In this document: positions 37,065 to 57,761 of the stretch, piece after piece
Layout of the letters: each line of letters starts with the position of its first letter
Position numbering within the stretch: position 1 is the first letter of the stretch
DNA from: Methylobacterium sp. Leaf112
Lineage (GTDB): Bacteria; Pseudomonadota; Alphaproteobacteria; Rhizobiales; Beijerinckiaceae
Direction of reading: 5' to 3'
DNA: 64,000 nt
Assembly (NCBI RefSeq): GCF_001423295.1
Contig: NZ_LMNG01000031.1
Coordinates: forward strand, 309,863 to 373,862
Translations under genes and position numbers: made by a program
The notes under the pieces: model-generated
The model's input: the letters and a program-made list of their open reading frames with translations, nothing else
Database searches by the model: none
Told to the model about the DNA's origin: nothing

Positions 37065-38150
37065 TCAAGGGGCCTGGAAGACTTCTTCGACCCATCCTGT
37101 GCGGAGCCAGGCCGGCATGCGGGCGTGGCAGCGGAACCCACGGTCGCGGGCGAGGTCCGCGACGACATTCTGGCGGTGGTCGCCGTTCTGGACGGCGGAT
37201 TCCTGATTGATGCTGAGGAACAGGCCGCCGGGGCGGATACGGTCGAGGTAGCGTCCGGCATCCGCCGGCGCCATCTCGGGCATGCTGTCGATGTTGATCA
37301 CCACATCCCAATCGGCAAACCGGTCTGCGCCTCCCGCGTAGGCGTTCACCAGGGCGATACCGGGCTCGCTTCGGTGGCCGAAGCCGACCACGTCCGCTCC
37401 GAACGCGGTGGCGAGCAGGATGTATTGCGGCACGAGGACCGGCGGCAGGTCGATGATGGCGAACCGCTCGCAGCCCATCCGCCGGGCGTAATAGGCAAGG
37501 TGGCCGGAGCCGCCACCGATCTCGAGGAGTGCAGGGGACCGAATCCCGAAATCGCGGGCGATCCGGTGGGCGCGCAAAGCCCCATAGATCCCGTCGAAGT
37601 GCCGATCGGAAAACGTGCCCTTGGCGAGTTGGACGCCGAACAGTTCGCCGGCCTGGCGGGGCGGGGTCAGGTCGCTCCCGATCCGATCCTCGATGGCTGC
37701 GAACAGGGCATCGAGTCCGTCGAGGACGAACTGCGTCTGGCCGTGCTCACGGCTCTGGACCCGCCCGGCACCGACGGCCTCCGAGAGGCGTACGAGCCGA
37801 TCGAGGATGATCCGTCCGACATGGAGGCGCGCCGCCGGATTGGACGTGAGGGATTCGTGGACCATGTGGCCCTGGAGGAAACCATGGGTCAGGGGCGTCG
37901 CGTAGAGCCGTTCCTCCACACGCGCCGCACGCACGGGGTCGTCGCCGGCGAGGTCGGCGAGACTCTCGCCGTAGAGTTCGGCATAGTCGCTCCAGAGCGA
38001 GGCATCGAGGCGCGCGGCCGGTGCCAAGCTCCGAACGTACGACCGAAGTCGCGCCTGCGGACCCGGATCGAGGCTGACACCGGTGCCGAATCCGAAGAGC
38101 TCGTCGCACAATCCCGTCCAATCGGGACGCCGGGAAAACGGATGCGACAC
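37065..38150 (-). CDS. Putative sugar O-methyltransferase
   Basis: A 361-residue protein with an N-terminal helical region and a C-terminal SAM-binding domain starting ALLEIGGGSGHLAYYARRMG, then AIIDLPPVLVPQYIL and the catalytic-region WDVVINIDSMPEM. This fits the 'putative sugar O-methyltransferase' family found in capsule and O-antigen clusters. I chose GTG 38150 because AGGAG lies 10 bases upstream; the frame continues upstream without resemblance. It ends the leftward surface-glycan gene run. Confidence 0.78.
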   Translation of the reverse strand: MSHPFSRRPDWTGLCDELFGFGTGVSLDPGPQARLRSYVRSLAPAARLDASLWSDYAELYGESLADLAGDDPVRAARVEERLYATPLTHGFLQGHMVHESLTSNPAARLHVGRIILDRLVRLSEAVGAGRVQSREHGQTQFVLDGLDALFAAIEDRIGSDLTPPRQAGELFGVQLAKGTFSDRHFDGIYGALRAHRIARDFGIRSPALLEIGGGSGHLAYYARRMGCERFAIIDLPPVLVPQYILLATAFGADVVGFGHRSEPGIALVNAYAGGADRFADWDVVINIDSMPEMAPADAGRYLDRIRPGGLFLSINQESAVQNGDHRQNVVADLARDRGFRCHARMPAWLRTGWVEEVFQAP

Positions 38151-38277
38151 GCGGGGGCTACTCCTGTTGCCCCGTTCTACAACCCCAGAGCAGAACGGCC
38201 AAGCCTTGGCGGTCGAGCCTCGGGGGCCACGTCGTGATGGCCGCTCCGATCCGCTCGAGGGGACGGGCTGATCCGAG

Positions 38278-38353
38278 AGAGGCCGAACCATCTCACAGAG
38301 GCCAGGTCACCTTACAAAGGCCAAGTCACCTCATAGAGGCCAAATCATCCGGT
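38278..38353. repeat. Four tandem 19-bp repeats
   Basis: Consecutive copies begin AGAGGCCGAACCATCTCAC, AGAGGCCAGGTCACCTTAC, AAAGGCCAAGTCACCTCAT and AGAGGCCAAATCATCCGGT. The last one and a half copies encode the final residues and stop codon of the adjacent leftward methyltransferase gene. Confidence 0.8.
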
Positions 38354-39197
38354 CCTCGGCCGCGTGACCGCCGATGCTCAAGGCCGGACGCGTCGCGCCG
38401 GGCTGGCGCAGGGGGTGGTCGAGGACGTGGAGGCCGTACATCTGTTCGAGCCAGGGCTCGTCGACGAAGGGCCGCCGGTAGCGAAGGGTGCGTAAGGTAT
38501 CGATCTTTCGCGATGCCGAGGCGCCCTGGTTGAACTCGTCGATGGCGAGCAATTGCCCGCACCAGCGGTTACGGAACAGGCTGCCGATGCGGGCCGGGCC
38601 GCCGATGGTGTCGTCGAAATAGGCCGGCACCACGGGGAGCAGGCAATCGGCCTTCGCCCCCGAGAACAAGGTCAGGCAGTCGACGCTGGAGCGGTAGATG
38701 TCGACATCGACGCTGACGAAGCCCACCGGCATCGCAGGCGTCAGCCCCGCGATGAAGCCCGGCAGGGTCTCGGCGATGTCGCCCCACACCATGGTGGCGT
38801 GCTCCGACAGCGCCTCGGGGTCGCGGGTCGGGAAGTCGCCCGCCTGCCAAATCTCGGGATGGTCGCGCACATCGACCAGGGACGGCAGGCCCGCTCCGGT
38901 GTCGAAGCCGAAGATGGTGAATCGGACGCCCGTCACCGCCGTCACCTTTGCGGCGAGCTCCGACAGGGCGCGCAGGCCTGCGCCCTCGGCGACGCCGAAC
39001 TCAATGGCCGCCACGTGGTCTATTCCTGAAAAGCGCGCGACATCCGCCGCCGTCAGCAGGCCGAATAGGTAGAACGGCCGCGTCTCGACGTCGTAGCGGG
39101 CCCGCTCGCGCAAGTCCGTGGAAACGGCGGCGCGGGCGCGCTCGGCCAGAAGGAACTCCGGATAGCGCCCCGTGAGCGGCGGCAGGGCCTCAGACAG
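38331..39197 (-). CDS. SAM-dependent methyltransferase-like protein
   Basis: About 288 residues. The core IDHVAAIEFGVAEGAGLRALSELA looks like a degenerate SAM-binding loop, and VGFVSVDVDIYRSS with ...LPVVPAYFDDTIG resembles the metal-dependent TylF/macrocin-O-methyltransferase fold. No ATG or GTG fits. CTG 39197 is proposed because AGGAGG lies exactly 6 bases before it inside the end of the upstream gene, overlapping that gene's stop by 8 bases; a TTG further up (near 39213) is the alternative. Substrate probably a surface sugar. Confidence 0.68.
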   Translation of the reverse strand: MSEALPPLTGRYPEFLLAERARAAVSTDLRERARYDVETRPFYLFGLLTAADVARFSGIDHVAAIEFGVAEGAGLRALSELAAKVTAVTGVRFTIFGFDTGAGLPSLVDVRDHPEIWQAGDFPTRDPEALSEHATMVWGDIAETLPGFIAGLTPAMPVGFVSVDVDIYRSSVDCLTLFSGAKADCLLPVVPAYFDDTIGGPARIGSLFRNRWCGQLLAIDEFNQGASASRKIDTLRTLRYRRPFVDEPWLEQMYGLHVLDHPLRQPGATRPALSIGGHAAEDRMIWPL

Positions 39198-39984
39198 GGG
39201 TCGCCTCCTCAAGCTTCTTCCACTGCACCGTGCGGGGCGTGGCATCGCCCTCTTCGGGATGACGGGAGTAGTAGAAGAACGCGAGCGACTTGCGGGTGCG
39301 CCCCTCGGGGCAGGCCAGCGGCTCGGGGTGGCCGTGATGCGAGGTCGACAGGGTACTGAACACCGCGAGCCGGTTGAAGTGCGGCATCACCCGGGCCTCG
39401 CACTTGGTGGCGTCGCGGTTCCAGAGCTGGAGGTCGCCGCCCCAGGATTCGTCCCAGTCCTTGTTGAGATAGAGGATGGCGTTGAGCTTCCGGTAGAGCC
39501 CGAACGGCTCGATCATGTTGAAGTCCGCGTGCACCCGGAGTTTCCCGCCCGGCAGGATCTGGTGCATGCCGCCGCCGTTGAGGCACGGGTCGGAGATGAG
39601 GTCCTTCAGGCCCGTCAGCGTCTCCAGGAAGTGCAGGAACGTGTAGGAATTGAACGCGTAGCACATGTTATGGATGAGCGGCGGCGCGCCCTCCATCCGC
39701 GAGGCGTGGCGCACCCCGAGCTTCTTCGGCTGATTGACCGTATCGCCCGCCTTCCAGTCGAACCACACCGGATCGTCCACCCCCGGATAGGCGGCGTGGA
39801 TGCGCTCGGCCACGTCGGCGGGCAGGAAGTCGTCGATCACCACGTGCGGGAATGGGTGCGCGCCGTTGTAGCCGGCGGCGTAATGCGCTGCCTTCTCCTG
39901 GAGGAACGCGTCCTCGAACTTGAAGAAGGGCTCGCCCACAGGGGGGAGGGGAGCCGGGGCCGCTCGCTTGAAGAGGTTCAGCAT
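39190..39984 (-). CDS. 2-oxoglutarate/Fe(II)-dependent oxygenase
   Basis: A 264-residue cupin-fold hydroxylase of the prolyl-4-hydroxylase-like 2OG-FeII_Oxy group. The iron ligands are His152 and Asp154 (RVHADFN) and His217 (TSHHGHP); Arg231 (RTRKSLAFFYY) should bind 2-oxoglutarate. Relatives are found in polysaccharide and glycoprotein loci, but substrates are mostly unknown. It lies 66 bases after the GT4 gene and overlaps the next methyltransferase, so all are in one operon. Confidence 0.85.
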   Translation of the reverse strand: MLNLFKRAAPAPLPPVGEPFFKFEDAFLQEKAAHYAAGYNGAHPFPHVVIDDFLPADVAERIHAAYPGVDDPVWFDWKAGDTVNQPKKLGVRHASRMEGAPPLIHNMCYAFNSYTFLHFLETLTGLKDLISDPCLNGGGMHQILPGGKLRVHADFNMIEPFGLYRKLNAILYLNKDWDESWGGDLQLWNRDATKCEARVMPHFNRLAVFSTLSTSHHGHPEPLACPEGRTRKSLAFFYYSRHPEEGDATPRTVQWKKLEEATPV

Positions 39985-40050
39985 CGACGCGATGTCTCGA
40001 AAGGGTGGGGCAAGCGATGTCGGTCCGCGCCGTGGCGGAATCGTGGCGGC

Positions 40051-41244
40051 TTACAGGAGGGAGGCGATGAGCGCCTTCTGGCGCGGCAGGCAGTGGCCGT
40101 GGAGGTCGTAGCGCTCCAGGATGGTGCGGCGCGCCTCCAGCCGGATGGCGTCGTAGTCGCGCGGGCGCTCCAGCACGGCGCGGACCCGCTCGGCCAGGGC
40201 GTGGGCATCGTGGAAATCGACGAGCAGGCCGTTGTGGCCGTCGACGATCACCTCCTCCACCGGGGGCGTGCGCGAGCCGATCACCAGGCACTCGGCCGCC
40301 ATGGCCTCCAGCATCGACCAGGACAGGAAGTACGGGTACGTCAGATAGATGTGCGCCGAACTCACGTAGAGCACGTCGAGGAAGGTGGTGTAGGGCACCC
40401 GCCCGAGGAAGTGGACGCGGGTCGCATCGATCTCCAGCTCGGCGAGCAGGCGCTGCCGGTGGGTCTCGCCGTTGGGCAGCGGGTTGCCGTAGGCCGGCTC
40501 GTCGGCCCCGATGATCACGAAATGCGCCTTCGGCCGGGTCTTGCACAGCTCGGCGATGGCCCGGATGGCGGTGGGGAAGCCGCGCAGGGGCTCCAACCCG
40601 CGCCCCACATAGGTCACCACCTCGTCCGCGCTCGTCAGCACGCGCCCGTCGGGGAGGGTGAGCTTGCCCCGGGCCGGGCGGCGGATCGACACCGTGTCGA
40701 TCCCGTCGTGGATCACGTTGAGCTTCTTCTGGATCGAGGCCGGATAGCTCGCGTACTGATAGTGCATCGGCGTCAGGCCGGCGTCGCACAGCTCGGCCGA
40801 CATCACGTTGGCGGTGTTCTTCATCCGGAACACGAACGGCGCGTCGCGGTCCACGGGCTCGGTCGGTTCGAAGTCGGCCAGGGGCTTCGCGCGAAGATAC
40901 CACTCGAAATAGCCGAGCACCGGCACCTTCGGGTAGAGGTCCTTGACGTAGAGGAGCTCGCCCCAGCCCACGTGGCCGATGATGAGGTCCGGCACCACCT
41001 TGAGCTCGGTCTGGAGGTGGAGGAGCGCCTTCGTCACCTTCTGCGCGTAGGTGAAGTGCGCCATCACCGGCAGCTCGTTCTTCACGTCGATCTGGTACTG
41101 GACCCGCTTCGTCCCCATCGATTCGCCCTGCCCGGCGGTGATGAAGTAGACGTCGTTCCCCGCCGCCGCCATCGCGGGGGCGAGGTTGCGGAACTGCGCC
41201 GGAATGTTCTGATGCACGAAGGCGATCACGGGCTTTTTCGACAC
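40051..41244 (-). CDS. Glycosyltransferase family 4
   Basis: A 397-residue GT-B enzyme. The N-terminal Rossmann domain has VIAFVHQNIPAQFRNLAPAMAAAG and PDLIIGHVGWGELL. The C-terminal domain holds the donor site: TYVGRGLEPLRGFPTAI, HFVIIGADEPAYG and the acidic E-x7-E region (LSWSMLEAMAAECLVIGSRTPPVEE). It transfers a sugar from a nucleotide donor onto a surface glycan in the cytoplasm. First gene of the leftward operon; divergent from the radical SAM gene. Confidence 0.9.
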   Translation of the reverse strand: MSKKPVIAFVHQNIPAQFRNLAPAMAAAGNDVYFITAGQGESMGTKRVQYQIDVKNELPVMAHFTYAQKVTKALLHLQTELKVVPDLIIGHVGWGELLYVKDLYPKVPVLGYFEWYLRAKPLADFEPTEPVDRDAPFVFRMKNTANVMSAELCDAGLTPMHYQYASYPASIQKKLNVIHDGIDTVSIRRPARGKLTLPDGRVLTSADEVVTYVGRGLEPLRGFPTAIRAIAELCKTRPKAHFVIIGADEPAYGNPLPNGETHRQRLLAELEIDATRVHFLGRVPYTTFLDVLYVSSAHIYLTYPYFLSWSMLEAMAAECLVIGSRTPPVEEVIVDGHNGLLVDFHDAHALAERVRAVLERPRDYDAIRLEARRTILERYDLHGHCLPRQKALIASLL

Positions 41245-41275
41245 GCGCGGAACTTTCAGCGGCTCAACAATCGAC

Positions 41276-41323
41276 GCGCCCTATAGCGCACCGCCACATT
41301 CTCGGCCATTGCGCCCTGTAGCG
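41276..41323. promoter_or_regulatory. Duplicated GCGCCCTATAGCG sites in a divergent promoter region
   Basis: GCGCCCTATAGCG at 41276-41288 and GCGCCCTGTAGCG at 41311-41323 lie in the 108-base region between the GT4 and radical SAM genes. A related pair with CTATAGCGC occurs at 34130-34172. They may be regulator binding sites or duplicated -10-like elements. Confidence 0.4.
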
Positions 41324-41352
41324 ACGGGGACCGAACGAGGGACCGAGGACCG

Positions 41353-42399
41353 ATGCAACACCTGTTTTCGCGTTTCCTCGCGAAACCCGCGGCGAAGTTG
41401 GTCCCGGCGGAGGCCCCCGGAGTGGCCCCGCAGGCCGCCGTCGCCCTGCCGCCCCTCAACATCCGGTATTACACCGACTACCCCACCTGCAACCTCGCCT
41501 GCTCCTATTGCGTCGCCGGCCACGGCACCACGTTCCAGAAGCCGCCGACCTCGAAGTGGGACCCCGCGCGCTACCGCCGCGTCATGCACAACATCGCCCA
41601 GCTGCCCTACGCGGTGAACATCCGCATCGGCGTCGGCGGCGAGTTCTTCGTCTCCAAGGATCTGGTGGACGGCGCCCGCACCCTGTCGCAGAGCCCGAAC
41701 CTCCACGCCCTCAACCTCATCACCAACCTCACCCTGTCGGTGCCGCAGTTCGAGAAGACTTTTGTCGGCTTCGACGAGGCGAAGATCGCCATGGTGGCGA
41801 GCTTCCACCCCGAGCAGATCAAGGACCACGAGGCGTGGTTCGACAAGGCGGCCGAGTTCAACCGCCGCTACGATTTCGCCGTCATCATGGTGGCCTTCCC
41901 CGAGGCGCTCGACGTGCTGGCCGACTACAAGGCCCGCCTCAATGCGCGGGGCGTCGACGTGTTCATCCAGCCCTTCGTCGGCCCCCACCAGGAGAAGTGG
42001 TACCCGCAGGCGTATTCGGACGCGGAGCGCGCGCAGATCAAGGCGATGATCTACTCGCGGCACGATTACGAATACCTGCTCAACGCCAAGCGCCCCGGCG
42101 CCTGCAACGCCGGCTACCGGGCGATCTTCATCGACCCCATGGGCGTCGTCACCCCCTGCGGCATGGGCAAGTACCACGGCTCGCTCGGCAACCTCGCCGA
42201 ATCACCCGAGATCACCCTGCGCGATGGGCCCGCCCCCTGTCCGTTCTCCTCGTGCCAGTGCGATACGGAGAACGTGAACACCGTCGAGTTCCACACGCAC
42301 TACGAGAAGAGCGGCGCCAACCAGCACCGCTACCGCTACCGCTTCGAGGACCTCGCGGCCCTCGACGAGCGCTACGACGAGTGGAAAATCCATTACTGA
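41353..42399 (+). CDS. Radical SAM protein with C-terminal cysteine cluster
   Basis: A 348-residue enzyme. The [4Fe-4S]/SAM motif is Cys46, Cys50, Cys53 (TCNLACSYC). A C-terminal SPASM/twitch-like set of cysteines lies in GACNAGYRAIFIDPMGVVTPCGMG and CPFSSCQCD and probably ligates a second cluster. The organisation resembles peptide- or sugar-modifying radical SAM enzymes with auxiliary clusters; the substrate is unknown. It is transcribed away from the glycan operon toward the surface-protein gene. Confidence 0.87.
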   Translation: MQHLFSRFLAKPAAKLVPAEAPGVAPQAAVALPPLNIRYYTDYPTCNLACSYCVAGHGTTFQKPPTSKWDPARYRRVMHNIAQLPYAVNIRIGVGGEFFVSKDLVDGARTLSQSPNLHALNLITNLTLSVPQFEKTFVGFDEAKIAMVASFHPEQIKDHEAWFDKAAEFNRRYDFAVIMVAFPEALDVLADYKARLNARGVDVFIQPFVGPHQEKWYPQAYSDAERAQIKAMIYSRHDYEYLLNAKRPGACNAGYRAIFIDPMGVVTPCGMGKYHGSLGNLAESPEITLRDGPAPCPFSSCQCDTENVNTVEFHTHYEKSGANQHRYRYRFEDLAALDERYDEWKIHY

Positions 42400-42404
42400 G
42401 AAAA

Positions 42405-42428
42405 AACAAGCCGGCTCATGGGCTTGTT
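42405..42428. terminator. Hairpin after the radical SAM gene
   Basis: An 8-bp stem AACAAGCC / GGCTTGTT with an 8-base loop, directly after the stop. The + side T-tract is weak (ttcatt), while the minus side has a run of T. Partial or bidirectional terminator. Confidence 0.5.
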
Positions 42429-42573
42429 CATTGCCTGAACGTCCCATTCAGGTGGAACTCTGTGATACTTCCACAACACGAATTTGAGGATTTCAGAGGC
42501 CTGTGCGGTTAACCCAAAATCCGGTTGCACCGCGCTCGGTTCTCTGAAAAAAGAGCCCAACCTTAAACGGAAC

Positions 42574-42590
42574 ACCCCTCTCGAAGGGGT
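42574..42590 (+). promoter_or_regulatory. Leader hairpin of the surface-protein mRNA
   Basis: ACCCCT-ctcga-AGGGGT lies about 80 bases before the surface-protein ATG, in an otherwise AT-richer leader. A 5' hairpin of this sort could stabilise an abundant mRNA. The gene's ribosome binding site AGGAG is about 7 bases before the ATG. Confidence 0.4.
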
Positions 42591-42670
42591 CCCCGCGGTG
42601 GGTGTCACGGCACTGGCAAGAATAGCCGGGCTGCGAAGCGAATTTTTGTCTGAGACCCCAGGAGAGCTTT

Positions 42671-44575
42671 ATGGCCACCTTTATTTTCGACGGTTCGTCG
42701 AACCAGACCGCGCTCAAGACCGATACCGTAGTCATCTCTGCAAACCCCGCTCTCTTCCGCGGCGTGTCTGAGGTGAACGGCAATTCCGTTTTCACCTACA
42801 CCAACGGCAACACTCTCACGATCACGGGCACCCCGGTCGCCGAGGGCAACTTCCCGAACGTTTCGCTTGCTAACGGTCTCTTCTCCGTCGCCAGCAGCGC
42901 AACGGTCAACCAGAGCGCAGCGAATGCGCTCGTGTTTGCTCCGACCGGCACCGTTGATGTGTCGGCCGGCAGCGTTGCTGGCGGTGTGAAGACGGTCTTC
43001 GGCGGCGTTGGCATTTCCGATCCGTCCGATGGCATTGACAACATTGCTATCGGTGGTGCTGGCAGCTTCCTCGTTTACGGCAACGCCGGTGCTGACGTCA
43101 TCACCCAGAACGGCGCGTTCGATTCCTCGAGCTTCGTCACTGTGTTCGGTGGCAAGAACGCTGTCGGAAACGATTCGATCACGCTGAATGCCGCCGGTAA
43201 CGCCACCAGTGGCGCTAAGATGGCCATCTATGGCGGTGAGAACACCGACTCTATCAACATCGTGAATGGTGGTACGGGCGCTGTTACGACGATCTTCGGT
43301 GGTCAGGGCGCTGCTGATCCCAACGATGGTAACGACAGCATCACCTTCAACGGTGGTGGAACGGTCAACATCTTCGGCAACGCTGGAGACGATAGCATCA
43401 TCGTTGGTGGCACGACCGGCCTGGCCTCGTCCTCCGTCGCTACCGTCTATGGCGGTCTCGGCAAGGATAGCATCGCTATCAACGTCGCTAACGTCAAAGC
43501 AACGGTTTCCGTCTTCGGTGGCGAGAACAACGCCGGCACCAGCAACGAAGATTCGATCACTGTGACCGGCAACACCGGCACCACGGTCATCTACGGCGGC
43601 ACTGCTGCTGCTGACGCGGCTGATAATGCCGATGTGATCAGCTACACTGGCCAGGGCACTGCGACCATCTACGCCGCTGGTGGCAATGACTCGATCACGC
43701 TGAACGGTGGCTTCGGCGTCACCGCTGACTCGACCAGCACCGTTACGCTGTTTGGCGGCAATGGTGATGACACGGTCAACGTGCTCAACACGCAGGCTGC
43801 GACTGGCATCACCACCATCACGCTCGGCGCTGGCGCTGACATCGTGAATGTTGGCTTGTCGAACGCTGCCACGACGGCTGCAACCACGGCCGCTGTTCCG
43901 GCCGTGACCCAGGTTACGAACGGTGCCGGTGCTGCATTTGAGGTCGACACTGTTGCTTTCAAGGCTCTGATTGCAGGTGATGCAGTCACGGCTGGTGGTC
44001 TTACGTTCACCGCAGCGCAAGATCTCACGGCAACACAGGTTGCTACTGCGTTTGCAGGTGTTGCCGCTAACGGTGTTGGTACCGCTTCAACCGCCCAAGG
44101 CGCTTATACCGGCACTCTGACTGGGTTCGCCAGCAGCGCTACCACGGCTGGCAATGTCGTCACGTTCACCGGTACGGTTGCTGGTACTACGACCGACATC
44201 ACCACCTCGGCTGCGCTGGGCAAAAACAGCATCGTCGGTAGCGGCTCGGGAACCATTGTCATCTCCGACTTCCTCGTCGGCGCTGGTAATGACACCCTGA
44301 ACGTTTCGGACGGCATCACCGGTACGCCGACCAAGTTCACCATCGTCGACGCATCGACCGCTCAGACGCTCGCAAGTGCTCTGAACCTCGCGTCGGCTAA
44401 CAATGGCGGTCCCACGACTGCTGGTGTTGTGACCGGTATCCTCTACGACAAGAGCGCCTACATCGTTGTCAACAACGACGGCAATGGTACCTTCAATGCG
44501 AGCTCTGATCTCGCGATCAAGCTGACCGGCGTGACGGATATCGCCGCGCTCCAGACCGCCACGACCCTGATCTAA
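42671..44575 (+). CDS. RTX/S-layer-like secreted surface protein
   Basis: A 634-residue, acidic protein of Gly, Asn, Asp, Thr, Ser, Ala and Val with no Cys, almost no Lys/Arg after the start, and no Sec signal peptide. Residues about 105-400 repeat a 40-45-residue unit with RTX-like calcium-binding turns (GNAGADVIT, GNAGDDSII, GGLGKDSIA, GGNGDDTVN) alternating with VFGG/IYGG strands. The C-terminal part ends hydrophobic (ATTLI), as expected of a type I secretion signal. ABC exporter and HlyD genes follow. Codon use is T-ending (GCT, GGT), unlike its neighbours. An S-layer monomer is the best guess; an adhesin is possible. Confidence 0.8.
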   Translation: MATFIFDGSSNQTALKTDTVVISANPALFRGVSEVNGNSVFTYTNGNTLTITGTPVAEGNFPNVSLANGLFSVASSATVNQSAANALVFAPTGTVDVSAGSVAGGVKTVFGGVGISDPSDGIDNIAIGGAGSFLVYGNAGADVITQNGAFDSSSFVTVFGGKNAVGNDSITLNAAGNATSGAKMAIYGGENTDSINIVNGGTGAVTTIFGGQGAADPNDGNDSITFNGGGTVNIFGNAGDDSIIVGGTTGLASSSVATVYGGLGKDSIAINVANVKATVSVFGGENNAGTSNEDSITVTGNTGTTVIYGGTAAADAADNADVISYTGQGTATIYAAGGNDSITLNGGFGVTADSTSTVTLFGGNGDDTVNVLNTQAATGITTITLGAGADIVNVGLSNAATTAATTAAVPAVTQVTNGAGAAFEVDTVAFKALIAGDAVTAGGLTFTAAQDLTATQVATAFAGVAANGVGTASTAQGAYTGTLTGFASSATTAGNVVTFTGTVAGTTTDITTSAALGKNSIVGSGSGTIVISDFLVGAGNDTLNVSDGITGTPTKFTIVDASTAQTLASALNLASANNGGPTTAGVVTGILYDKSAYIVVNNDGNGTFNASSDLAIKLTGVTDIAALQTATTLI

Positions 44576-44598
44576 AACTCAGATAATTGGCGAATGAG

Positions 44599-44626
44599 AA
44601 GGGCGGCTTAGGCCGCCCTTTTTTTG
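44599..44626 (+). terminator. Rho-independent terminator after the surface-protein gene
   Basis: Stem AAGGGCGGC / GCCGCCCTT with loop TTAG followed by seven T residues. It separates the very abundant surface-protein message from the exporter genes. Confidence 0.9.
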
Positions 44627-44770: not shown

Positions 44771-46510
44771 ATGACTGACATTCGCCGCAACCTGCTCGAC
44801 CAAGCGTTGAGGTCGTCAGTTCGACCCCTTGGTTATGCTTTTCTTTTTAGCTTTTGTATCAACATACTATACTTAGCTTTGCCGCTTTATATGGTTCAAC
44901 TCTATGGGCGGGTGTTTGCGAGCCAAAGCATCGCGACCCTTCTGATAATGGCTTTTAGCGTAACTGGTGCATTTATAGTTTCTGCTGTTCTTGATCATTA
45001 TCGTAGCAGCGTTCTGATCCACTTTGGTGTGCTTTTTGACCGCCTTTTGGCTCAGCACGTCTTCGGCGCACTCTTTTCTGGAGAATTAAAAGAGAATACT
45101 GGCCAGAGCCAGGCTGTTCGTGACCTCGATGTTTTTCGTCAAACATTGACGGGCAGCGGCATGGCAGTGTTCTTTGACCTACCGTGGATGCCCATATTTA
45201 TGGGCGCACTATTTATTATAGATCCTTGGGTGGGCTTACTTTGTCTCGTTGGTGGCTTTATCCTGCTGGGCCTTGCAGTCTTACAGGATCGGGTTTCCCG
45301 CAGGGCAATCACCCGCGTGAACAGCGCTGCGATTCGAGGCTATCAGTTTACCGACATGGCGCTCCGCAATGCGGAAGTTGTGCGCGCACTTGGAATGCTT
45401 CCTGCATTGACCAAGCGTTGGCAAGTTGATCGGCTGACTCTTATTAACGGTCAAGCTCATGCCAGCGAACAGGCTGGTAAGATCGGCGAGCTCATCAAGT
45501 TTACCCGCATGCTGATCCAGATCATGGTCTTAGCCCTCGGCGCCTTTCTGGTTCTCAAACAGGTTATTGGGCCCGGCGTTCTTTTTGCAAACATGATCCT
45601 GTCTTCGAAGGCGTTAGCACCTTTCGAACGGGTTGCCGGTTCATGGCAGAGCCTTGTCGAGGCCGGACAGATTTACAAGCGCCTTGGTAAACTCATGGAT
45701 GGGTACGAACCCAATCCTGTCGCGACGGCTATGCCACGCCCCAACGGCTTGATCGAAGTTCAGAATGTCACCTTTCAATTGCCCACCATGAAGGAGCCGG
45801 TTCTCAAGAACATTACGTTCTCCCTGAAGGCCGGCGAGGCCCTCGGCATCATCGGCCCCTCGGGCGCCGGCAAGTCGACCCTGACCCGAATGCTCATCGG
45901 CATCTGGAAGCCGACGGAGGGGCATGTCCGCCTCGACGGCATGGAGGTCCATGCCTGGGACCGCGCCGCCTTCGGCCGGCATGTGGGTTACCTGCCCCAG
46001 GACACGGAGCTGTTCACCGGTACCGTACGCGACAACATCGCCCGGTTCCGCACCGACGTCTCCGACGAGGCCGTGACCCGCGCCGCCCAAGACGCCGGCA
46101 TCCACGACCTCATCGTCCGCCTGGAGAAGGGCTACGAGAGCGAGCTCGGCGCCAGCGGCACCACGGTGTTCTCCGTCGGCCAGCGCCAGCGCCTCGGCCT
46201 CGCCCGGGCGCTGCTCGGCGACCCCAGCCTCGTGGTTCTGGACGAGCCCAACGCCAACCTCGACACCGAGGGCGAGGCCGCGCTCCTCGACGTGCTCGGC
46301 GCCCTCAAGGCCCGCGGCGTCACCGTGGTCATCGTCTCCCACCGGGCGTCCGTGTTCCGGCACGTGGACAAGATCCTGTTCGTGCGCGGCGGCGAGGTCC
46401 AATCCTTCGGCGACCGCGACGTGATCCTGGGCCAGCTCATGCAGCCCGCCGGCGTCCCCGGCACCGCCGAGACCCGCGCCGCCCCGCCGCCGGCCGTGGC
46501 GCAGGGGTAG
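44771..46510 (+). CDS. Type I secretion ABC exporter (PrtD/RsaD-like)
   Basis: A 579-residue permease-ATPase. Residues about 20-310 are the transmembrane domain (YAFLFSFCINILYLALPLYM). The ATPase has Walker A GPSGAGKST (about 363), signature SVGQRQRLGLARAL, Walker B VVLDEPNANLD and His in SHRAS. The VGQRQR signature is that of type I protein secretion exporters. The first roughly 1000 bases are AT-rich with A/T-ending codons; from about 45790 the gene turns sharply GC-rich with G/C-ending codons. It should export the RTX-like protein through the HlyD adaptor and an outer-membrane TolC not found here. Confidence 0.93.
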   Translation: MTDIRRNLLDQALRSSVRPLGYAFLFSFCINILYLALPLYMVQLYGRVFASQSIATLLIMAFSVTGAFIVSAVLDHYRSSVLIHFGVLFDRLLAQHVFGALFSGELKENTGQSQAVRDLDVFRQTLTGSGMAVFFDLPWMPIFMGALFIIDPWVGLLCLVGGFILLGLAVLQDRVSRRAITRVNSAAIRGYQFTDMALRNAEVVRALGMLPALTKRWQVDRLTLINGQAHASEQAGKIGELIKFTRMLIQIMVLALGAFLVLKQVIGPGVLFANMILSSKALAPFERVAGSWQSLVEAGQIYKRLGKLMDGYEPNPVATAMPRPNGLIEVQNVTFQLPTMKEPVLKNITFSLKAGEALGIIGPSGAGKSTLTRMLIGIWKPTEGHVRLDGMEVHAWDRAAFGRHVGYLPQDTELFTGTVRDNIARFRTDVSDEAVTRAAQDAGIHDLIVRLEKGYESELGASGTTVFSVGQRQRLGLARALLGDPSLVVLDEPNANLDTEGEAALLDVLGALKARGVTVVIVSHRASVFRHVDKILFVRGGEVQSFGDRDVILGQLMQPAGVPGTAETRAAPPPAVAQG

Positions 46511-46730: not shown

Positions 46731-48158
46731 ATGAAACTCCCCGCCAATCTCGGCCAGACCGTGGGCACCGCCATCGGGCGGATCGTCCCCGTGAAGATGC
46801 CGGCCTTCGCCCTGGCGCCGGCCGCCCCCATCCCGCATTCCGCCGACGAGGCGGAGATCCTGCGCGAACTCGAAGCCCGGGTGAAGAAGCCCATCGTCGC
46901 CGGCATGGCCGTGGTGGTGGTGTTCGTGCTCGGCACCTTCGTCTGGTCGGCGGTGGCGAGCCTGCACGGCGCCATCGTCACCCCCGGCTACCTCCGGGTC
47001 GAATCCAGCCGCAAGACCATCAAGCACCGCGACGGCGGCGTGGTCCGGGAGATCCTGGTCAAAGAGGGCGCCGTGGTGAAGCAGGGCGACGTGCTGATCC
47101 GCATGGACGACGCCACGCCGCGCGCCCAGGCCGAGGTGCTGGCGTCGGGCCTCGACGGCCTGCTGGTCCAGCGCGCCCGCCTCTACGCCGAGCGCGACGG
47201 GGCCGACAGCATCACCCTGCCGAAGGAGATCGTCGCCCGCGCGTCCGAGCCCGACATCGCCATGATGATCCGCGACCAGGAGAATCTTTTCAAGACCCGC
47301 AAGGCCTCGATGGAGAGCCAGTTCGACGTGTTGCGCAAGCGCATGGACCAGTCGCAGACGCGCCTCGCCGGCCTCGACGCCACGATCAAGTCCATCGAGA
47401 GCCAGTCCGCCCTGATCCAGGACGAACTCGTGGGCGTGCAGTCGTTGTACGAAAAAGCCCTGGTGCCGAAGGCCCGGGTGCGCCAGCTCGAGCGCTCGGC
47501 CGCCGAACTCGTCGGCAACCGCGGCGCCCAGATCTCCGAGGTCGCCCGCACCAAGGAACTGATGTCCGAATCCGAGTTCCAGATCGCCAGCATGCGCCAG
47601 ACCCGCTACGCCGAGGTGGCCGAAGCGCTCCGCGACGTCCAGGCCAAGATCAACGACACGCTGCCCCGCCTCCACGCCGCCCGCGAGACCCTCGACATGG
47701 TCGAGGTCCGCGCCCCCGACGACGGCTACGTGCTGAACCTGACCCAGTTCACCAAGAACGGCGTCGTCACCCCCGGCGAGCGCCTCATGGACCTCGTGCC
47801 GACCGACGCCCCCCTGGTGGTGGAAGCCAAGCTCAAGCCCGATGAGGCCTACGAGGTCACCCAAGGCATGAAGGCGCACATCCAGCTCGCCACCTACGAG
47901 GCGCGCCAGCTGCCGCCGATCCCCGCCACGGTCACCAAGGTCTCGGCCGACCGCCAGCAGGACCAGCGCACCGGCGAGCCGTACTTCACCGTGGAACTCT
48001 CCATCGAGCCCGAGGCCCTCAAGGACCTCGTCAAGCACATTCGCCTCTACCCCGGCATGTCGGCCACCGCGATGATCGGCACCGGCGAGCGCACGGTCCT
48101 CGACTACGTCACCAGCCCGGTCCGCGATTCGCTGAAGGGCGCCCTCAAGGAGCGCTAG
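46731..48158 (+). CDS. Type I secretion HlyD-family membrane fusion protein
   Basis: A 475-residue periplasmic adaptor. Short cytoplasmic N-terminus, one transmembrane helix near 56-76 (AGMAVVVVFVLGTFVWSAV), a lipoyl/biotinyl half-motif (GGVVREILVKEGAVVKQGDVLIRMDD), a long coiled coil (about 150-320), the second half-motif (VRAPDDGYVLNLT) and a beta-barrel with ...GMSATAMIGTGERTVLDYV. It bridges the ABC exporter to an outer-membrane channel. Normal high-GC codon use, unlike the start of the exporter gene. Confidence 0.93.
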   Translation: MKLPANLGQTVGTAIGRIVPVKMPAFALAPAAPIPHSADEAEILRELEARVKKPIVAGMAVVVVFVLGTFVWSAVASLHGAIVTPGYLRVESSRKTIKHRDGGVVREILVKEGAVVKQGDVLIRMDDATPRAQAEVLASGLDGLLVQRARLYAERDGADSITLPKEIVARASEPDIAMMIRDQENLFKTRKASMESQFDVLRKRMDQSQTRLAGLDATIKSIESQSALIQDELVGVQSLYEKALVPKARVRQLERSAAELVGNRGAQISEVARTKELMSESEFQIASMRQTRYAEVAEALRDVQAKINDTLPRLHAARETLDMVEVRAPDDGYVLNLTQFTKNGVVTPGERLMDLVPTDAPLVVEAKLKPDEAYEVTQGMKAHIQLATYEARQLPPIPATVTKVSADRQQDQRTGEPYFTVELSIEPEALKDLVKHIRLYPGMSATAMIGTGERTVLDYVTSPVRDSLKGALKER

Positions 48159-48269: not shown

Positions 48270-49247
48270 ATGCCATCGGAAACGCGCGCCGACGCCATGG
48301 CGGGACTGAACGCACGTTCTCTGGCTGCGAGGCCATGGGTCCAGCCGGGCTACCGTTACCGTCCCGCCAGCCAGCATGATCAGGCGGGACACGACTTTCG
48401 CGGCACGCATCCCTACTTCGGGTGGACACACGTGCAGGTCGACGAGATCGACCTGACGATGTTTTCGAGCAACGACGACGGCGTTGCCATGGTCTACCAC
48501 GCGTTCGGACCGGACGCCTATGAAGCGGCCAGCGTCGCTGCGTGGCTGGCCATCGCGAAACATTCGGCAGCCGTGGCCGATGTCGGATCATTCACGGGCT
48601 TGTTCGGCATGTTGGCGCAGGTCGCTGCCCCCAATGCATCGGTGATCGCCATCGAACCCAATCCGGCCGTGCGTGCGCGCTTGTTCATGAATCTCGTGGC
48701 GAATGGTTGCTACCCGAAACTGAAAGTTGCCCCCTACGCCGTCTCGAACGCGCTCGGTACGCTGTCCCTGCATGTCGCCTGGGGGCCAGACATCCTTGAT
48801 ACGGGATCGTCATTGAACGCTCCGCAGAACCGGCCGGACTGGCTCCCAATAAGGATGGAGATCGTGACGGCGGCGCCGCTCGACGTGATCCTGGCGGAAC
48901 ACGGATTTGCGAAGCTCGATCTGATCAAAATCGACGTCGAAGGCGTTGAGGCTATGGCTTTAGCCGGAGCTCGCAAGACATTGGCAGCTCAGCCCACCCT
49001 GTTTCTGGAGGTTCAAGGGCATGAGAACTTCGCCGCCTGCTATGCAATTCTGGCAGCGCACGGCTACCGTGTCTCTGCAATCGATGACGAGAACCTGCGG
49101 CTAATCCCGTACCAGGGATCGTCTGCGGCTGAATGGTTCTCGGAGAACGTTGGTGCACGGGTGATGAACTATCTCTGCGTTGCCCGTTCGGAGCATGAGG
49201 AAATGGTCCGCCATGGTCTCGCTCGCATACAAGCAAAGAACAGATAG
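48270..49247 (+). CDS. FkbM-family methyltransferase
   Basis: A 325-residue SAM-dependent methyltransferase. The FkbM core is clear: VADVGSFTGLFGMLAQVAAP, VIAIEPNPAVRARLFMN, and the signature LDLIKIDVEGVEAMALAGA. Members methylate sugar hydroxyls in polyketide, capsule and glycolipid pathways. An ATG at codon 10 (48297) is an alternative start. The base composition of this gene is a little lower in GC than the secretion adaptor. Confidence 0.87.
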   Translation: MPSETRADAMAGLNARSLAARPWVQPGYRYRPASQHDQAGHDFRGTHPYFGWTHVQVDEIDLTMFSSNDDGVAMVYHAFGPDAYEAASVAAWLAIAKHSAAVADVGSFTGLFGMLAQVAAPNASVIAIEPNPAVRARLFMNLVANGCYPKLKVAPYAVSNALGTLSLHVAWGPDILDTGSSLNAPQNRPDWLPIRMEIVTAAPLDVILAEHGFAKLDLIKIDVEGVEAMALAGARKTLAAQPTLFLEVQGHENFAACYAILAAHGYRVSAIDDENLRLIPYQGSSAAEWFSENVGARVMNYLCVARSEHEEMVRHGLARIQAKNR

Positions 49248-49339
49248 TCTGCACAACCGAATATCATCGTAAGGTCAGCAATAATTACAACAAGATCACC
49301 AGTCAAACCCGCATATACTAAGCCTGATTACTTTGGGCT

Positions 49340-50353
49340 CTAGTTTATAAGCTCCAGCATTTCCCGAGCAACATCAGAAGCGTCGGGTAGATATCGCAGG
49401 GTGAGGAAATTGGCCTGCTGCTCCAAAACCTGCAGGGCCGGGGGATAATGGTAGGTCGAGGTGTTTCCAGCCAATCCATCAATGAGCAAGTAGTTGGTAT
49501 TGATCTGCTCCGTAACATTGAGGCATGTGATACGACGGTTGGGGCAGAAGATACTGGCATGCAAGAATGAACCTGCAGACCCCATGATACGCTCGCGTGA
49601 CGACATCAAGCGAATTTGATCAACGAAACTCAAGGTCTCCGGATAGATGATTTCGACACCTGCCTGATCGAGAACCGTCTCGATTTCGTGCTCATTGGTG
49701 ATCCGGCCTACCGCTGACATTAGCCTGGTCTTCGAATAGTAAATCGGTGTGGGGTTTTGATTAACAGAACTCGTGGCCCGTATACGGGCACCCATCTTGC
49801 GGCACATGTCGCCATAGACCTGATAGCCCGCGGATTGTTCCTCCAAGCTCGTACTTGGAATGACGACAGAGCGGACGCGTGTAGGTTCGTGAAAATTTAC
49901 GAAGTCCCGCGGCGATAGACCGAGCAGACCGAAGGCGGCGGCAATGAAAGGCACGCCGAACCATTCAGCCGGCGTTCCAGGTCCATGACACAGGATCGGA
50001 GTCCGGGGCGAACGAATGCGCGCCATGGCCCAGAAACGCGGGAGGGTGTTGATCAAAAAATGCCCAAAATGCGGGTTGATACGTCCACCGTAGATGTATG
50101 CTCCATGGGGGGCCTCACACGCGATGTCTTCCGCGGTGAGGCTGGTCTCCAAACGTTGATCCGGCGGGATATGCGTGCGTTCACGGTAATCCGTCGCCGC
50201 GGCGATGGGGGTTCCGTCCTGTGCGAACAACCCCCAAGCCTGACCATGGGTGTAAGGTAAGTAGAATCCGTCCTGCACGACGGAGACGTCCGGTTCGAGG
50301 CCGCGAATTTCCGCGGTACCCCATAAGCTCGTGCAGGATCGGAGGAGGCTCAT
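49340..50353 (-). CDS. Glycosyltransferase family 61 protein
   Basis: A 337-residue protein of the GT61/DUF563 type. Diagnostic pieces are INPHFGHFLINTLPRFWA, RVRSVVIPSTSLEEQ, IYYSKTRL and the C-terminal ...GSAGSFLHASIFCPN. In bacteria these occur in capsule and O-antigen loci and probably transfer pentose or hexose residues. It follows the methyltransferase gene by 6 bases on the same strand, so they form one operon. AT-richer than the region-1 genes. Confidence 0.8.
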   Translation of the reverse strand: MSLLRSCTSLWGTAEIRGLEPDVSVVQDGFYLPYTHGQAWGLFAQDGTPIAAATDYRERTHIPPDQRLETSLTAEDIACEAPHGAYIYGGRINPHFGHFLINTLPRFWAMARIRSPRTPILCHGPGTPAEWFGVPFIAAAFGLLGLSPRDFVNFHEPTRVRSVVIPSTSLEEQSAGYQVYGDMCRKMGARIRATSSVNQNPTPIYYSKTRLMSAVGRITNEHEIETVLDQAGVEIIYPETLSFVDQIRLMSSRERIMGSAGSFLHASIFCPNRRITCLNVTEQINTNYLLIDGLAGNTSTYHYPPALQVLEQQANFLTLRYLPDASDVAREMLELIN

Positions 50354-50359
50354 GGGGAC

Positions 50360-51025
50360 TCAATAGTTGACGCGAAGCGATTCGTTGCCGATCATTTTCA
50401 TAAATTTATTAATCATTGGCGCGCGCTCGAAAACAAGAATGCTGTCGTAGGCAGTCATTGCGATTGTTTGTCGCGTAAAGGCACTTGGGGCCACGGTACC
50501 GTCCTTGACGTGATCCGCATTGAGATCGTCGATAAGCCCTTTGAAACGTTCGACCATGGACCGCGGATCGTTACGACCGCCGCCGTAATCCGGCCAGTAT
50601 GCGGTATGCATATCCTCGATCATGTAGATACCATTGGCGGCGATACGCTCGTAGAGAAACTCGAACGTCGCCGTGACATGCGCCATGTGATGGCTGCCAT
50701 CATCGAGTACGGCATCGAAAACACCGAACTCATCGATCAACGATTGCAGGAAAGCGGGGTCGGACTGATCACCGATCCTTACGGCGACTTGCTCGTCACC
50801 GTACTGTCGACAAACATCATTGATGTCGATGGTGACGATACGTGCAAGCGGCCCGAGCCAACGTTTCCACATCTGCGACGAACCGCCATTCCCGGCGCCG
50901 ATCTCAAGAAATGTTACAGGCTGGCCGACATAGCGACCGAAATGGCGCTCATAGGCGAAGAAGTAGTGCCCCGATTTGTGGATTGGTCGACCGGTATTGG
51001 AGAGAAAGATTTCGTACAAGGACAT
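50360..51025 (-). CDS. Class I SAM methyltransferase, CmcI/rhamnosyl-methyltransferase-like
   Basis: A 221-residue protein from ATG 51025 (MSLYEIFLSNTGRPIHKS). The SAM site is VTFLEIGAGNGGSSQMW, followed by IVTIDINDVC, DAVLDDGSHHMAHV (metal- or substrate-binding acidic patch) and GIYMIEDMHTAYWPDYG. The family methylates sugars of surface lipids or acts like cephalosporin hydroxylase CmcI. An ATG at 51052 would add 9 residues; the frame further upstream has no resemblance. Pairs with GT61. Confidence 0.8.
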   Translation of the reverse strand: MSLYEIFLSNTGRPIHKSGHYFFAYERHFGRYVGQPVTFLEIGAGNGGSSQMWKRWLGPLARIVTIDINDVCRQYGDEQVAVRIGDQSDPAFLQSLIDEFGVFDAVLDDGSHHMAHVTATFEFLYERIAANGIYMIEDMHTAYWPDYGGGRNDPRSMVERFKGLIDDLNADHVKDGTVAPSAFTRQTIAMTAYDSILVFERAPMINKFMKMIGNESLRVNY

Positions 51026-51524
51026 GTGGCGTTCGGGCTCCGGCTGTATCATGGACTCGTACGCTCGTTCGGGCACTGCGCGAGCGGGTCGTCCGTCAGT
51101 AGTTTGTTTGTCGTCGAATCCCCGCCTCTTCTGTTGATGGGGAACGCGGTTTATCGAATTTATACCCGTTTGCTCGTGGCAGATCGGAGCAATTTCAGGG
51201 CCGGGCCGATTTCGTCCTCGGGCCTGGAACCGCAATGCCCTGCGGCGGGATTGCTCAAACACCGGGAGCTGATGGTACGAAGCGTGCCTTCGACGCCATG
51301 CGCCTCCCTTCCCCCTATCGCTTGTGAACCCAATTCCTATGGTCTCGCTCGGTACCCGGTGTTAGGCCAACGTGCTACAGGAATCGACGATAGAGCGAAC
51401 GAAGCCGATACCCTGATCCATGCGGTATGTGGGTGATTGGTCCGGCGTCACATGATAGGGATGGCAATGTAAGGACAGCAAACCGCCCTCAAGTCAGCTC
51501 TTAGACACGCCCGGAAAATATTGC
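51026..51524. other. Intergenic region between divergent glycan genes
   Basis: No gene is supported. It should contain promoters for the leftward methyltransferase-GT61 pair and the rightward giant glycosyltransferase. The final 40 bases before 51525 are AT-rich. Nothing else was seen. Confidence 0.35.
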
Positions 51525-54500
51525 ATGTTCGTTAGGCGGCTATTTCGCAAAAATTCTCGGGTCGGCAAAACCAATTCAAAAAGTTTCGATCATAAGTTTT
51601 ACCGTATATATTATTCGGATCTATCGAATGTTTCGACCCCTCGTGCGTTGCTAAAGCACTACACGGCGCATGGTCGTCGGGAGGGACGTTACCCGCATGC
51701 ATCCGCTCTCATGGACGCCTTGAGTTCTGAGCTTGGGCAACTACCTACTGATTTCCATGCTGAACGCTATCGTCAGCTCAATGGTGATCTTTCTCATATA
51801 CGAGAGGACTGGGCGCTCGCGGAACACTACCTGCGTTTTGGTCGCGGGGAGGGTCGGGCGTACGGCCTCCCAGACGACTTCGACGCGGCATTCTATCAGC
51901 GCTACTACCACGACCTATCCGAGATTCCGGATGGCGGCCTGATCGAGCATTTCTTACAGTTCGGTCACCTGGAGGGGCGAGCGCCGAACCCGCGCGTGCT
52001 CATCAGACGACTCGAAGAAGAATTCGGGCGGCTTCCGGGCGATTTCATTCCGAGCCATTACCGCCGGCTCTACGGAGACCTCTTCGATAAGGTCGCACCC
52101 TGGGAACTGCAGGAGCATTTTCTGCGCCATGGTCGGTCTGAGGGCCGCCCCTATCGCCGTCGGCGCAACGAGGCCGGCGAGCGGGATCTTGCCAATATCC
52201 GCGGGGCCGCCGCCGCAACCGGTGTTTTGCCCGAGCCCGTGCTTGACCATTTCATGCTCTACGAATTTTCCATCCTGAATGCGAGCTGGCTTCCCCATCG
52301 CCCGGCTTCACGCTTGGAGGGTATCCACTTGTTCCTGGAACAGGGGGTCGAACGATTGGCACCCATGTCCATGAAGGCCAAGTTCGATCCACAATTCTAC
52401 CGCTCGCAGTTTCCCGACAAGGCGTCCTTGAGTGATGTCGAACTCTATCGCGATTGGCTGAGTTTCGGGATCGTCGATGACGTTCCAGGCAGCGAAGGAA
52501 GCGCCCTGGCTCAACTGATCGGTGAGGACACGTTCCCCGACTGCTTCGATGACGTAGCCTATGATGCCAGCCAAGCTTTCAGCGAGAAGCCTTTTCCCGC
52601 GGGTCGGTTCGCTGCCCTCGCACATTTCGTCGCCGGCGGCTTTGTCGAGCATCATCGAGTCGTGCGCGGGGCCGGTGCAGCTCGCCTGTTTGGACAGATC
52701 GCCAACTATCATCTCATCCGCAACGATCACGATAGGACCCTGACGGCCGCCGGGCACGGACTTGCCGCCGCTCCCTCGGACCCATTGCTCCTACACCAAC
52801 GCGCCGAAGCGCTGCGAGCACTTGGCCGCGATGGTGAAGCGACAGCCGACTATGCCGTAGCGGCCAATCTCCCTGGGGCGGGCTTGTGGACCCATATTCA
52901 CGCCGCTTTGGGGCTGGCTGCCAAGCCTGGTGCATCCGAGGAGGCACTCGACCGGATCGAACGATCGGCCAGAACCTTCCGTGGTGCACCAGAATGGCGG
53001 ATCGCTGCGCATCAGACCGTCGCGCTTGTCTTCGCCAGCATCAGCCGGGACGCAAAAGCCCTTTATGCGCTCGGCCGGCGACAGGAGGCCGACGATCGCC
53101 TTACCGCCTGTCTCGACCGGTTGACGGGGGTCATTGCAACCGTCGACCCCTTACCGGGGCGACTTCCGCCACTTCGCAACGGCCGGATCGTGGTCGTTGC
53201 CAATCGCGACCTCCCCCAGTGCGACCACTACCGCGTGGTGCAGAAATGTCGGCAGCTCGAGCATGGCGGATGGACCGTCGAACTTTTCAAGCAGGACGAG
53301 GCGGATCGATGCCGATCGAGCCTCGACTCTGCGTCTGCGGTGATCTTCTATCGAGTCGCAGCCTTCCCCGCGGTTTTGCATGCAATTCTTTACGCAAAGG
53401 CGCTTGGGCTACCGACGTTTTATGAAATCGACGATCTGCTGTTCGACCCGCGACATTATCCTGATCCGTTCGACAGTTTCGAGGGGCAGATCACCGAACA
53501 GGATTACATCGAACTACAGTATGGCGTACCGCTGTTCCGTTACGCCCTAGGCTTGTGCGACGCCGGATTTGCGTCGACACCTGCCCTGGCGGACGCCATG
53601 CGGCCGCATCTTCCTCAAGGATCCTGTCACGTTCTGCGCAATGGGCTCGACCAGCGCAACGAACCCTTCCTCGCACATCGGGCGGCCCCCTTCTCCGAGG
53701 GCTCCGTGACGCTCTTCTACGGATCGGGGACGAAAGCCCATAACCGGGATTTCACCGTCCTCCTTGCCCCCGCCCTGTTGGAAATTTTAGCCCGCCATCA
53801 GCATGTGCGGCTCGTGATCGCCGGCTACCTCCACCTCGACGCACGGTTTGACGCGTTTGCGGGCCAAGTTCGACAACTCGGCTTTTGTGGGGACGTGGCG
53901 TCCTATTGGGACGTCCTTTCCGCCACCGATATCAATCTTGCGGTGCTCATGCGCAGCCCCATGGCGGACGCCAAGAGCGAGATCAAATGGTTGGAGGCCG
54001 CCATGTGCGGGGTTCCGTCGATCGTTTCCGGGACGCGCACCTACCGGGAATTGCTCAGCGATGGGGTCGACGCGGTGCTCGCCGATACGTCCGAAGATTG
54101 GCTTCAGGCCCTCGACCGGTTGATCGTCGATCATACTCTGCGGCGGGCAATCGGAGAGCGGGCTCGTCTGAAAGCGTTGCGCGAGTACGGATTGGATCAG
54201 GCCGTCGCGGTTCTTACCCATGCACTGCCGCCGCCGCGGCCTGAGTCCCCCAATCTTATGGGAACCGCTCAGCCTCGCCCGAGAACCTACCGGCCGGTCG
54301 CTGGGCGAAAGCCGCGTGTTCTCATTCTGAATGTCTATTTTCCCCCGCAACTCGTGGGTGGGGCGACGCGCGTCGTTCGGGACAACCTGGATCACTTTCT
54401 CGATCATGCCGCTGACCGTTTCGAATTCGCGGTCGCGGCGGCTGACGATGGCGCTCACCCGGCCTACAGCACGCGCATCGACCATTACCGTGGCGCACCG

Positions 54501-57132: not shown

Positions 57133-57761
<629 letters not shown>

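What the first reader, a model, noticed from the sequence alone, without database searches (positions are those of the whole stretch)
37065..42399. Glycan operon pairing GT4, 2OG-oxygenase and two methyltransferases, divergent from a radical SAM enzyme
A 2OG-Fe(II) oxygenase, a radical SAM protein with an extra cysteine cluster and O-methyltransferases sit directly beside an S-layer-like gene. Radical SAM and 2OG enzymes are not standard parts of capsule loci. Together they suggest an unusual oxidised, methylated sugar or a modified peptide, possibly an S-layer decoration or anchor.
Basis: inference. Interest (0 to 1): 0.62.

Follow-up and report, generated by a model that had tools for sequence, protein, structure and literature searches.

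The report
Sugar-tailoring genes beside secreted surface protein
In a Methylobacterium genome, four sugar-modifying genes and a radical SAM enzyme travel as one block with a secreted calcium-binding surface protein and its export pump, which suggests that they make an unusual methylated, oxidised sugar for the cell surface; the parts are of known kinds, but this combination was found in only one other genome.

Summary
A minus-strand operon GT4 > 2OG-Fe(II) oxygenase > O-methyltransferase (MT2) > NanM-like methyltransferase (MT1) is divergent from radical SAM > RTX protein > PrtD > HlyD. The eight genes form one cassette, found whole only in Methylobacterium sp. J-090 among 111 genomes of the genus, at another chromosomal site and under purifying selection. 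The radical SAM enzyme's extra cysteines are a family trait (SPASM-like, shared with the STM4011 family); two of three non-STM4011 relatives lie among methyltransferase and sugar genes. Relatives of the GT4 lie beside type I secretion genes in about 9 of 43 other Methylobacterium places. The RTX protein is acidic and cysteine-free; its solenoid and C-terminal module recurs fused to an M10 protease and a GH16 domain, as in Caulobacter RsaA and Sap. No precursor-peptide gene is evident. Most likely the enzymes tailor a surface sugar on which the RTX protein docks (inferred); glycosylation of the RTX protein itself is the main rival. New variant of a known kind (RsaA-type S-layer and glycan locus).

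The parts
40051..41244 (-). GT4 glycosyltransferase (Glyco_trans_4_3 + Glycos_transf_1), first gene of the minus-strand operon
   Evidence: 97-98% identical in J-090; relatives beside T1SS genes in Methylobacterium and beside RTX and methyltransferase genes in Azospirillum
39190..39984 (-). 2OG-Fe(II) oxygenase (PF13640)
   Evidence: 98% identical in J-090, dN/dS 0.03; relatives in EPS loci
38331..39197 (-). MT2, class I SAM O-methyltransferase (weak Methyltransf_24 / CalS11-like); probable CTG start with AGGAGG, overlapping the 2OG stop (translational coupling)
   Evidence: 2OG>MT2 tandem also in Sinorhizobium sojae
37065..38150 (-). MT1, putative sugar O-methyltransferase (weak TIGR04371 NanM-like); GTG start, 361 aa in both genomes
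41245..41352 (.). 108-bp divergent promoter region between GT4 and radical SAM genes, strongly conserved in J-090
41353..42399 (+). Radical SAM enzyme, remote relative of the STM4011 family; C46-x3-C50-x2-C53 plus auxiliary Cys 251, 269, 296, 301, 303
   Evidence: weak model matches viperin, anSME, EpeE and DesII
42400..42670 (+). Conserved leader between radical SAM and RTX genes; no precursor-peptide gene evident
42671..44575 (+). RTX-type surface protein, 634 aa, pI 4.05, no Cys; ~400-residue beta-solenoid and ~110-residue C-terminal module
44771..46510 (+). PrtD-type T1SS ABC transporter
   Evidence: TIGR01842 E 4e-189
46731..48158 (+). HlyD-type T1SS adaptor
   Evidence: TIGR01843 E 1.4e-106
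55780..56940 (-). Sulfotransferase-like gene; directly follows HlyD in J-090 (68% identity), separated in the window by four low-GC3 genes
48270..55544 (.). Accessory glycan genes of the window only: FkbM methyltransferase, GT61, Methyltransf_24-like, 1339-aa multi-domain GT; GC3 0.62-0.70
57133..57558 (-). Integrase-core (rve) fragment, an insertion-sequence remnant at the right edge of the block

Best explanation
A co-inherited surface cassette. PrtD/HlyD export the RTX protein (strongly implied by family and adjacency). GT4, 2OG oxygenase, the two O-methyltransferases and the radical SAM enzyme tailor a surface sugar: GT4 transfers it, the radical SAM enzyme (SPASM-like) and the 2OG enzyme oxidise or epimerise it, and MT1/MT2 O-methylate it (each activity inferred from family). 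The modified sugar most likely ends up on lipopolysaccharide or exopolysaccharide, where it serves as the docking ligand for the RTX module, as O-antigen does for Caulobacter RsaA (inferred).
For: The eight-gene order is conserved in J-090 at a different site, with purifying selection on every gene. The radical SAM gene (2 of 111) and close 2OG and GT4 orthologues occur in the genus only in genomes that also carry this RTX family (3 of 109). 2OG relatives lie in EPS loci and in a 2OG>MT2>Wzy_C order in S. sojae. Radical SAM relatives lie beside FkbM methyltransferase and UDP-sugar dehydrogenase genes or among methyltransferases, an epimerase and a GT2. GT4 relatives lie beside T1SS genes and RTX genes. 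The RTX module is also fused to M10 and GH16 domains encoded elsewhere in these genomes, which suggests a common surface ligand. Caulobacter precedent: RsaA binds O-antigen after T1SS export (PMC8828063); O-antigen genes are required for S-layer attachment (Awram and Smit 2001, listed in PMC3034196).
Against: No substrate or product is known for any of the five enzymes. The cassette has no flippase, polymerase or nucleotide-sugar genes, so it must depend on a glycan made elsewhere. Only two genomes carry it, so the co-inheritance statistics are thin. G267 has the RTX/T1SS genes but no detected sugar genes, though that genome is 85% complete and the contig ends inside the RTX gene. Linkage of RTX and glycan genes does not prove that they act on each other.
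Confidence: 0.5

Rival explanations
1. The enzymes build and tailor a sugar directly on the RTX protein in the cytoplasm before type I export (glycosylated RTX surface protein).
For: One GT with tailoring enzymes but no flippase or polymerase in the cassette; GT4 relatives beside at least three distinct T1SS arrangements in the genus; RTX surface proteins such as SwmA and oscillin appear glycosylated (PMC3034196).
Against: Enzymes are 91-98% conserved between the two genomes (MT1 82%) while the RTX protein is 58% identical; the RTX-module fusions lie elsewhere without these enzymes; 2OG and MT2 relatives occur in EPS loci without T1SS genes.
Confidence: 0.27
2. Radical SAM and 2OG enzymes modify a peptide (a RiPP, or residues of the RTX protein) rather than a sugar.
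For: Weak similarity of the 2OG enzyme to the YhhC peptide oxygenase model (E 4.1e-6, far below its cut-off) and of the radical SAM enzyme to a sactipeptide maturase (StsB, E 1.4e-5); Foldseek matches include the peptide epimerase EpeE and anSME.
Against: No precursor-peptide gene is evident between the genes; the 2OG gene is in the operon with the GT and the methyltransferases, not with the radical SAM gene; relatives of both lie with glycan genes.
Confidence: 0.07
3. Flagellar glycosylation island: the genes decorate flagellin.
For: FlgE- and FlgK-like genes lie just beyond the window end, next to the 1406-aa GT2 gene.
Against: In J-090 the GT2 gene stays beside the flagellar genes on one contig (C52, no cassette within about 18 kb to its left) while the cassette is on another contig (C53).
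Confidence: 0.05
4. Neighbouring but functionally unrelated genes kept together on a mobile block.
For: dS differs strongly between genes (0.16 for GT4 to 1.1 for RTX and PrtD), and RTX and PrtD have lower GC3: a mosaic history.
Against: Order and spacing are conserved at two chromosomal sites; GT4-T1SS linkage recurs in independent arrangements.
Confidence: 0.11

Closest known systems
Caulobacter crescentus rsaA-rsaD-rsaE S-layer locus with O-antigen genes needed for attachment
   Same: Acidic, Cys-free RTX protein with a C-terminal T1SS region, adjacent PrtD/HlyD-type exporter, associated sugar genes, and a related RTX-module protease (Sap there; an M10 fusion here)
   Different: The protein is shorter (634 aa) and shows no detectable sequence similarity to RsaA chains in the PDB; the sugar genes here are tailoring genes (2OG, radical SAM, methyltransferases); no evidence of abundance or a lattice
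STM4011 family radical SAM protein (NF038073)
   Same: CxxxCxxC and the same auxiliary cysteine pattern; E 2.5e-21
   Different: 76 bits against a cut-off of 200; 24-28% identity; no STM4012-4015 partners
2OG-Fe(II) oxygenases of alphaproteobacterial and cyanobacterial EPS loci
   Same: 36-49% identity, beside GT, methyltransferase, flippase or Wzy-type genes
   Different: Here coupled to an RTX/T1SS unit and a radical SAM gene
Azospirillum brasilense plasmid locus (NZ_CP032350.1) with GT4, methyltransferases, long GT and RTX proteins
   Same: GT4 47% identical; RTX calcium-binding and M10 RTX proteins and two methyltransferases nearby
   Different: No 2OG, radical SAM or T1SS gene within 9 kb

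Membership tests
RTX S-layer protein (RsaA type) | Acidic protein lacking cysteine | tested here: met
   pI 4.05, 0 Cys in both orthologues
RTX S-layer protein (RsaA type) | Glycine/aspartate-rich calcium-binding repeats forming a beta-roll or solenoid | tested here: inconclusive
   3 GGxGxD-like repeats against 0.08 in shuffles but no Pfam HemolysinCabind match; weak model, best matches a Ca-dependent beta-helical antifreeze protein, adenylate cyclase toxin RTX domain, alkaline protease and RsaA, all E > 0.03
RTX S-layer protein (RsaA type) | Adjacent type I secretion genes | tested here: met
   PrtD and HlyD directly downstream
[quoted passage not shown]
   No PDB chain, RsaA included, at E <= 0.01
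RTX S-layer protein (RsaA type) | Abundant two-dimensional lattice on the cell | not testable with these tools
   Needs microscopy and proteomics
STM4011 radical SAM family | Score above the NCBIfam cut-off | tested here: not met
   76.2 bits, cut-off 200
STM4011 radical SAM family | Linkage to STM4012-4015 genes | tested here: not met
   None in window or J-090 block; annotated beside the Deinococcus relative
Radical SAM superfamily | CxxxCxxC cluster motif and TIM-barrel-like fold | tested here: met
   C46/C50/C53; weak model matches viperin, anSME, EpeE and DesII
2OG-Fe(II) oxygenase | Profile match above the Pfam cut-off | tested here: met
   PF13640 61.3 bits, cut-off 27
Sugar O-methyltransferase (TIGR04371) | Score above the NCBIfam cut-off (MT1) | tested here: not met
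   22.1 bits, cut-off 44
RiPP locus (radical SAM + 2OG) | Small precursor-peptide gene next to the maturase | tested here: inconclusive
   Neighbouring gaps inspected only by ORF list and pairwise DNA alignment; no candidate evident

The most novel reading that the evidence does not exclude
The radical SAM and 2OG enzymes modify the RTX polypeptide itself (for example epimerisation, cross-link or hydroxylation later capped with a methylated sugar) before type I secretion, a kind of modified surface protein that I do not know to have been described.
Probability: 0.08. Interest if true: 0.8.

Novelty: new variant of a known kind. Interest (0 to 1): 0.42.

Why it matters
If true, the cassette gives a compact, testable case of an RTX surface protein inherited together with the enzymes that make its sugar ligand or sugar coat, and assigns a probable sugar-tailoring role to a rare branch of radical SAM enzymes related to the uncharacterised STM4011 family. 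It also corrects the assumption that 2OG oxygenases are foreign to exopolysaccharide loci.

Tried and rejected
The radical SAM structure model is poor (pLDDT 47, two sequences) and the RTX model moderate only over about residues 69-400, so fold matches are supporting evidence only. A small precursor peptide between the radical SAM and RTX genes was looked for and not found. The flagellar-island reading was rejected from J-090 synteny. Three non-STM4011 radical SAM relatives were examined; one (L204) has no glycan context. Not all 2OG relatives are in glycan loci: Sphingomonas, Comamonadaceae and Variovorax plasmids and two Methylobacterium loci are not clearly so. Paper searches for STM4011, for radical SAM in EPS loci and for RTX glycosylation found nothing usable. 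No baseline for glycan-gene density on the searched plasmids was computed; pSymB is rich in EPS genes.

Full report
Observation. On the minus strand lie GT4 (40051-41244), 2OG-Fe(II) oxygenase (39190-39984), MT2 (38331-39197) and MT1 (37065-38150); on the plus strand lie the radical SAM gene (41353-42399), the RTX gene (42671-44575), PrtD (44771-46510) and HlyD (46731-48158). MT1 starts at GTG 38150, giving 361 aa in both genomes. MT2 probably starts at CTG 39197 behind AGGAGG, overlapping the 2OG stop; the J-090 copy has no ATG/GTG/TTG start upstream of motif I. The start is inferred.

Distribution. The window lies in a Methylobacterium genome (G000; genus taken from the 91% identical J-090 record). 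One close orthologue set was found, in Methylobacterium sp. J-090 (L001/G271). In the genus the radical SAM orthologue is in 2 of 111 genomes; the close 2OG and GT4 orthologues are in the same two. Searches of 199 family, 385 class and 398 phylum genomes found only remote relatives or none. The RTX family is in 3 of 109 genus genomes: G000, G271 and G267 (85% complete, fragmentary contig).

A travelling block. The eight genes keep order and orientation in J-090, but the surroundings differ. The window's chemoreceptor gene left of the block is on another J-090 contig, and the GT2 gene beside the flagellar genes to the right is on a third, without the block within about 18 kb to its left. An integrase-core fragment lies at 57133-57558. 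In J-090 a sulfotransferase gene directly follows HlyD; in the window four low-GC3 glycan genes lie between. All genes are under purifying selection (dN/dS 0.03 for 2OG to 0.32 for RTX), but dS varies from 0.16 (GT4) to about 1.1 (RTX, PrtD), which points to recombination or exchange.

Radical SAM enzyme. It matches NF038073 (STM4011) at 76 bits, below the cut-off of 200. An alignment with the J-090 orthologue and 14 remote relatives shows that the CxxxCxxC motif and five further cysteines are conserved, so the 'extra cysteine cluster' is a family feature, SPASM-like in pattern (inference). The Deinococcus relative is annotated within an STM4011-4015 set, and G410 has similar-looking neighbours (read from sequence only). 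Of three other relatives, one sits beside an FkbM methyltransferase and a UDP-sugar dehydrogenase, one in a locus with several methyltransferases, an epimerase and a GT2-like gene, and one has no such context.

2OG oxygenase and MT2. Relatives at 36-49% identity lie in EPS or sugar loci of Allocoleopsis, S. meliloti pSymB, Beijerinckia, Ruegeria and Parasedimentitalea, with exceptions. On the S. sojae plasmid a 2OG relative is followed after about 60 bp by an MT2 relative (43%) and a gene with a weak Wzy_C match.

GT4. Relatives of 34-44% identity occur in 39 further genomes of the 109 searched. In about 9 of some 43 places outside the two cassettes a PrtD or HlyD homologue lies within about 10 kb, in at least three arrangements; a rough expectation from a few such pairs per 6-Mb genome is under one. 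This expectation is an estimate, and related genomes are not independent. In Azospirillum brasilense a 47% relative lies with two RTX proteins, two methyltransferases and a long GT.

RTX protein. No Pfam match even at E 1, pI 4.05, no cysteine, RTX-like repeats above shuffled expectation. The model matches Ca-dependent beta-helical and RTX structures only weakly. About 400 residues plus a C-terminal region of about 110 residues recur in proteins encoded elsewhere in G000 and J-090: fused to an M10 metallopeptidase with HExxH, to GH16, and to a PATR-containing protein. This resembles the RsaA/Sap relation in Caulobacter (PMC3034196) and suggests a shared export or surface-docking module (inference).

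Mechanism. Shown: gene content, order, conservation, families. Inferred: T1SS export of the RTX protein (strong), sugar as substrate of the enzymes (moderate), docking of the RTX protein on the tailored glycan (weak to moderate, by analogy with RsaA and O-antigen; PMC8828063). The main rival is glycosylation of the RTX protein before export; RTX surface proteins such as SwmA and oscillin are reported as glycosylated (PMC3034196). A RiPP reading lacks a precursor gene.

Verdict. The 2OG enzyme, and probably the radical SAM enzyme, are not out of place in glycan loci; what is unusual is their fixed linkage to an RTX/T1SS unit. New variant of a known kind.

Noticed in passing
39190-39197: MT2 probably begins with a CTG codon six bases after AGGAGG and overlaps the 2OG stop codon; the same arrangement with AGGAGA is in J-090.
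   Followed up: partly
L186:8121-10193; L188:8571-10712; L189:7940-10180; L185:5806-9558: The RTX solenoid and C-terminal module recurs fused to M10 peptidase, GH16 and PATR-containing proteins elsewhere in G000 and J-090; no close relative of the cassette's PrtD/HlyD pair was seen in these stretches.
   Followed up: partly
57133-57558: Integrase-core fragment at the right edge of the block; J-090 has a transposase-like ORF left of the GT2 gene at the corresponding flagellar site (L222:11908-12438), named from its sequence only.
   Followed up: partly
59613-63833 and L107:2922-6413: A 1406-aa protein with three GT2 domains lies next to FlgE- and FlgK-like genes, conserved at 85-89% in J-090: a likely flagellar glycosylation gene separate from the cassette.
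   Followed up: partly
42671-46510: RTX and PrtD have GC3 of about 0.70 while the flanking radical SAM and HlyD genes have 0.93-0.95, and their dS to J-090 is about three times higher: the RTX-PrtD segment may have been exchanged.
   Followed up: no
L188:3461-8183: Beside the M10-RTX fusion gene in J-090 lie two methyltransferase-like ORFs and a GT61-like ORF of low GC, resembling the window genes at 49340-51262.
   Followed up: no
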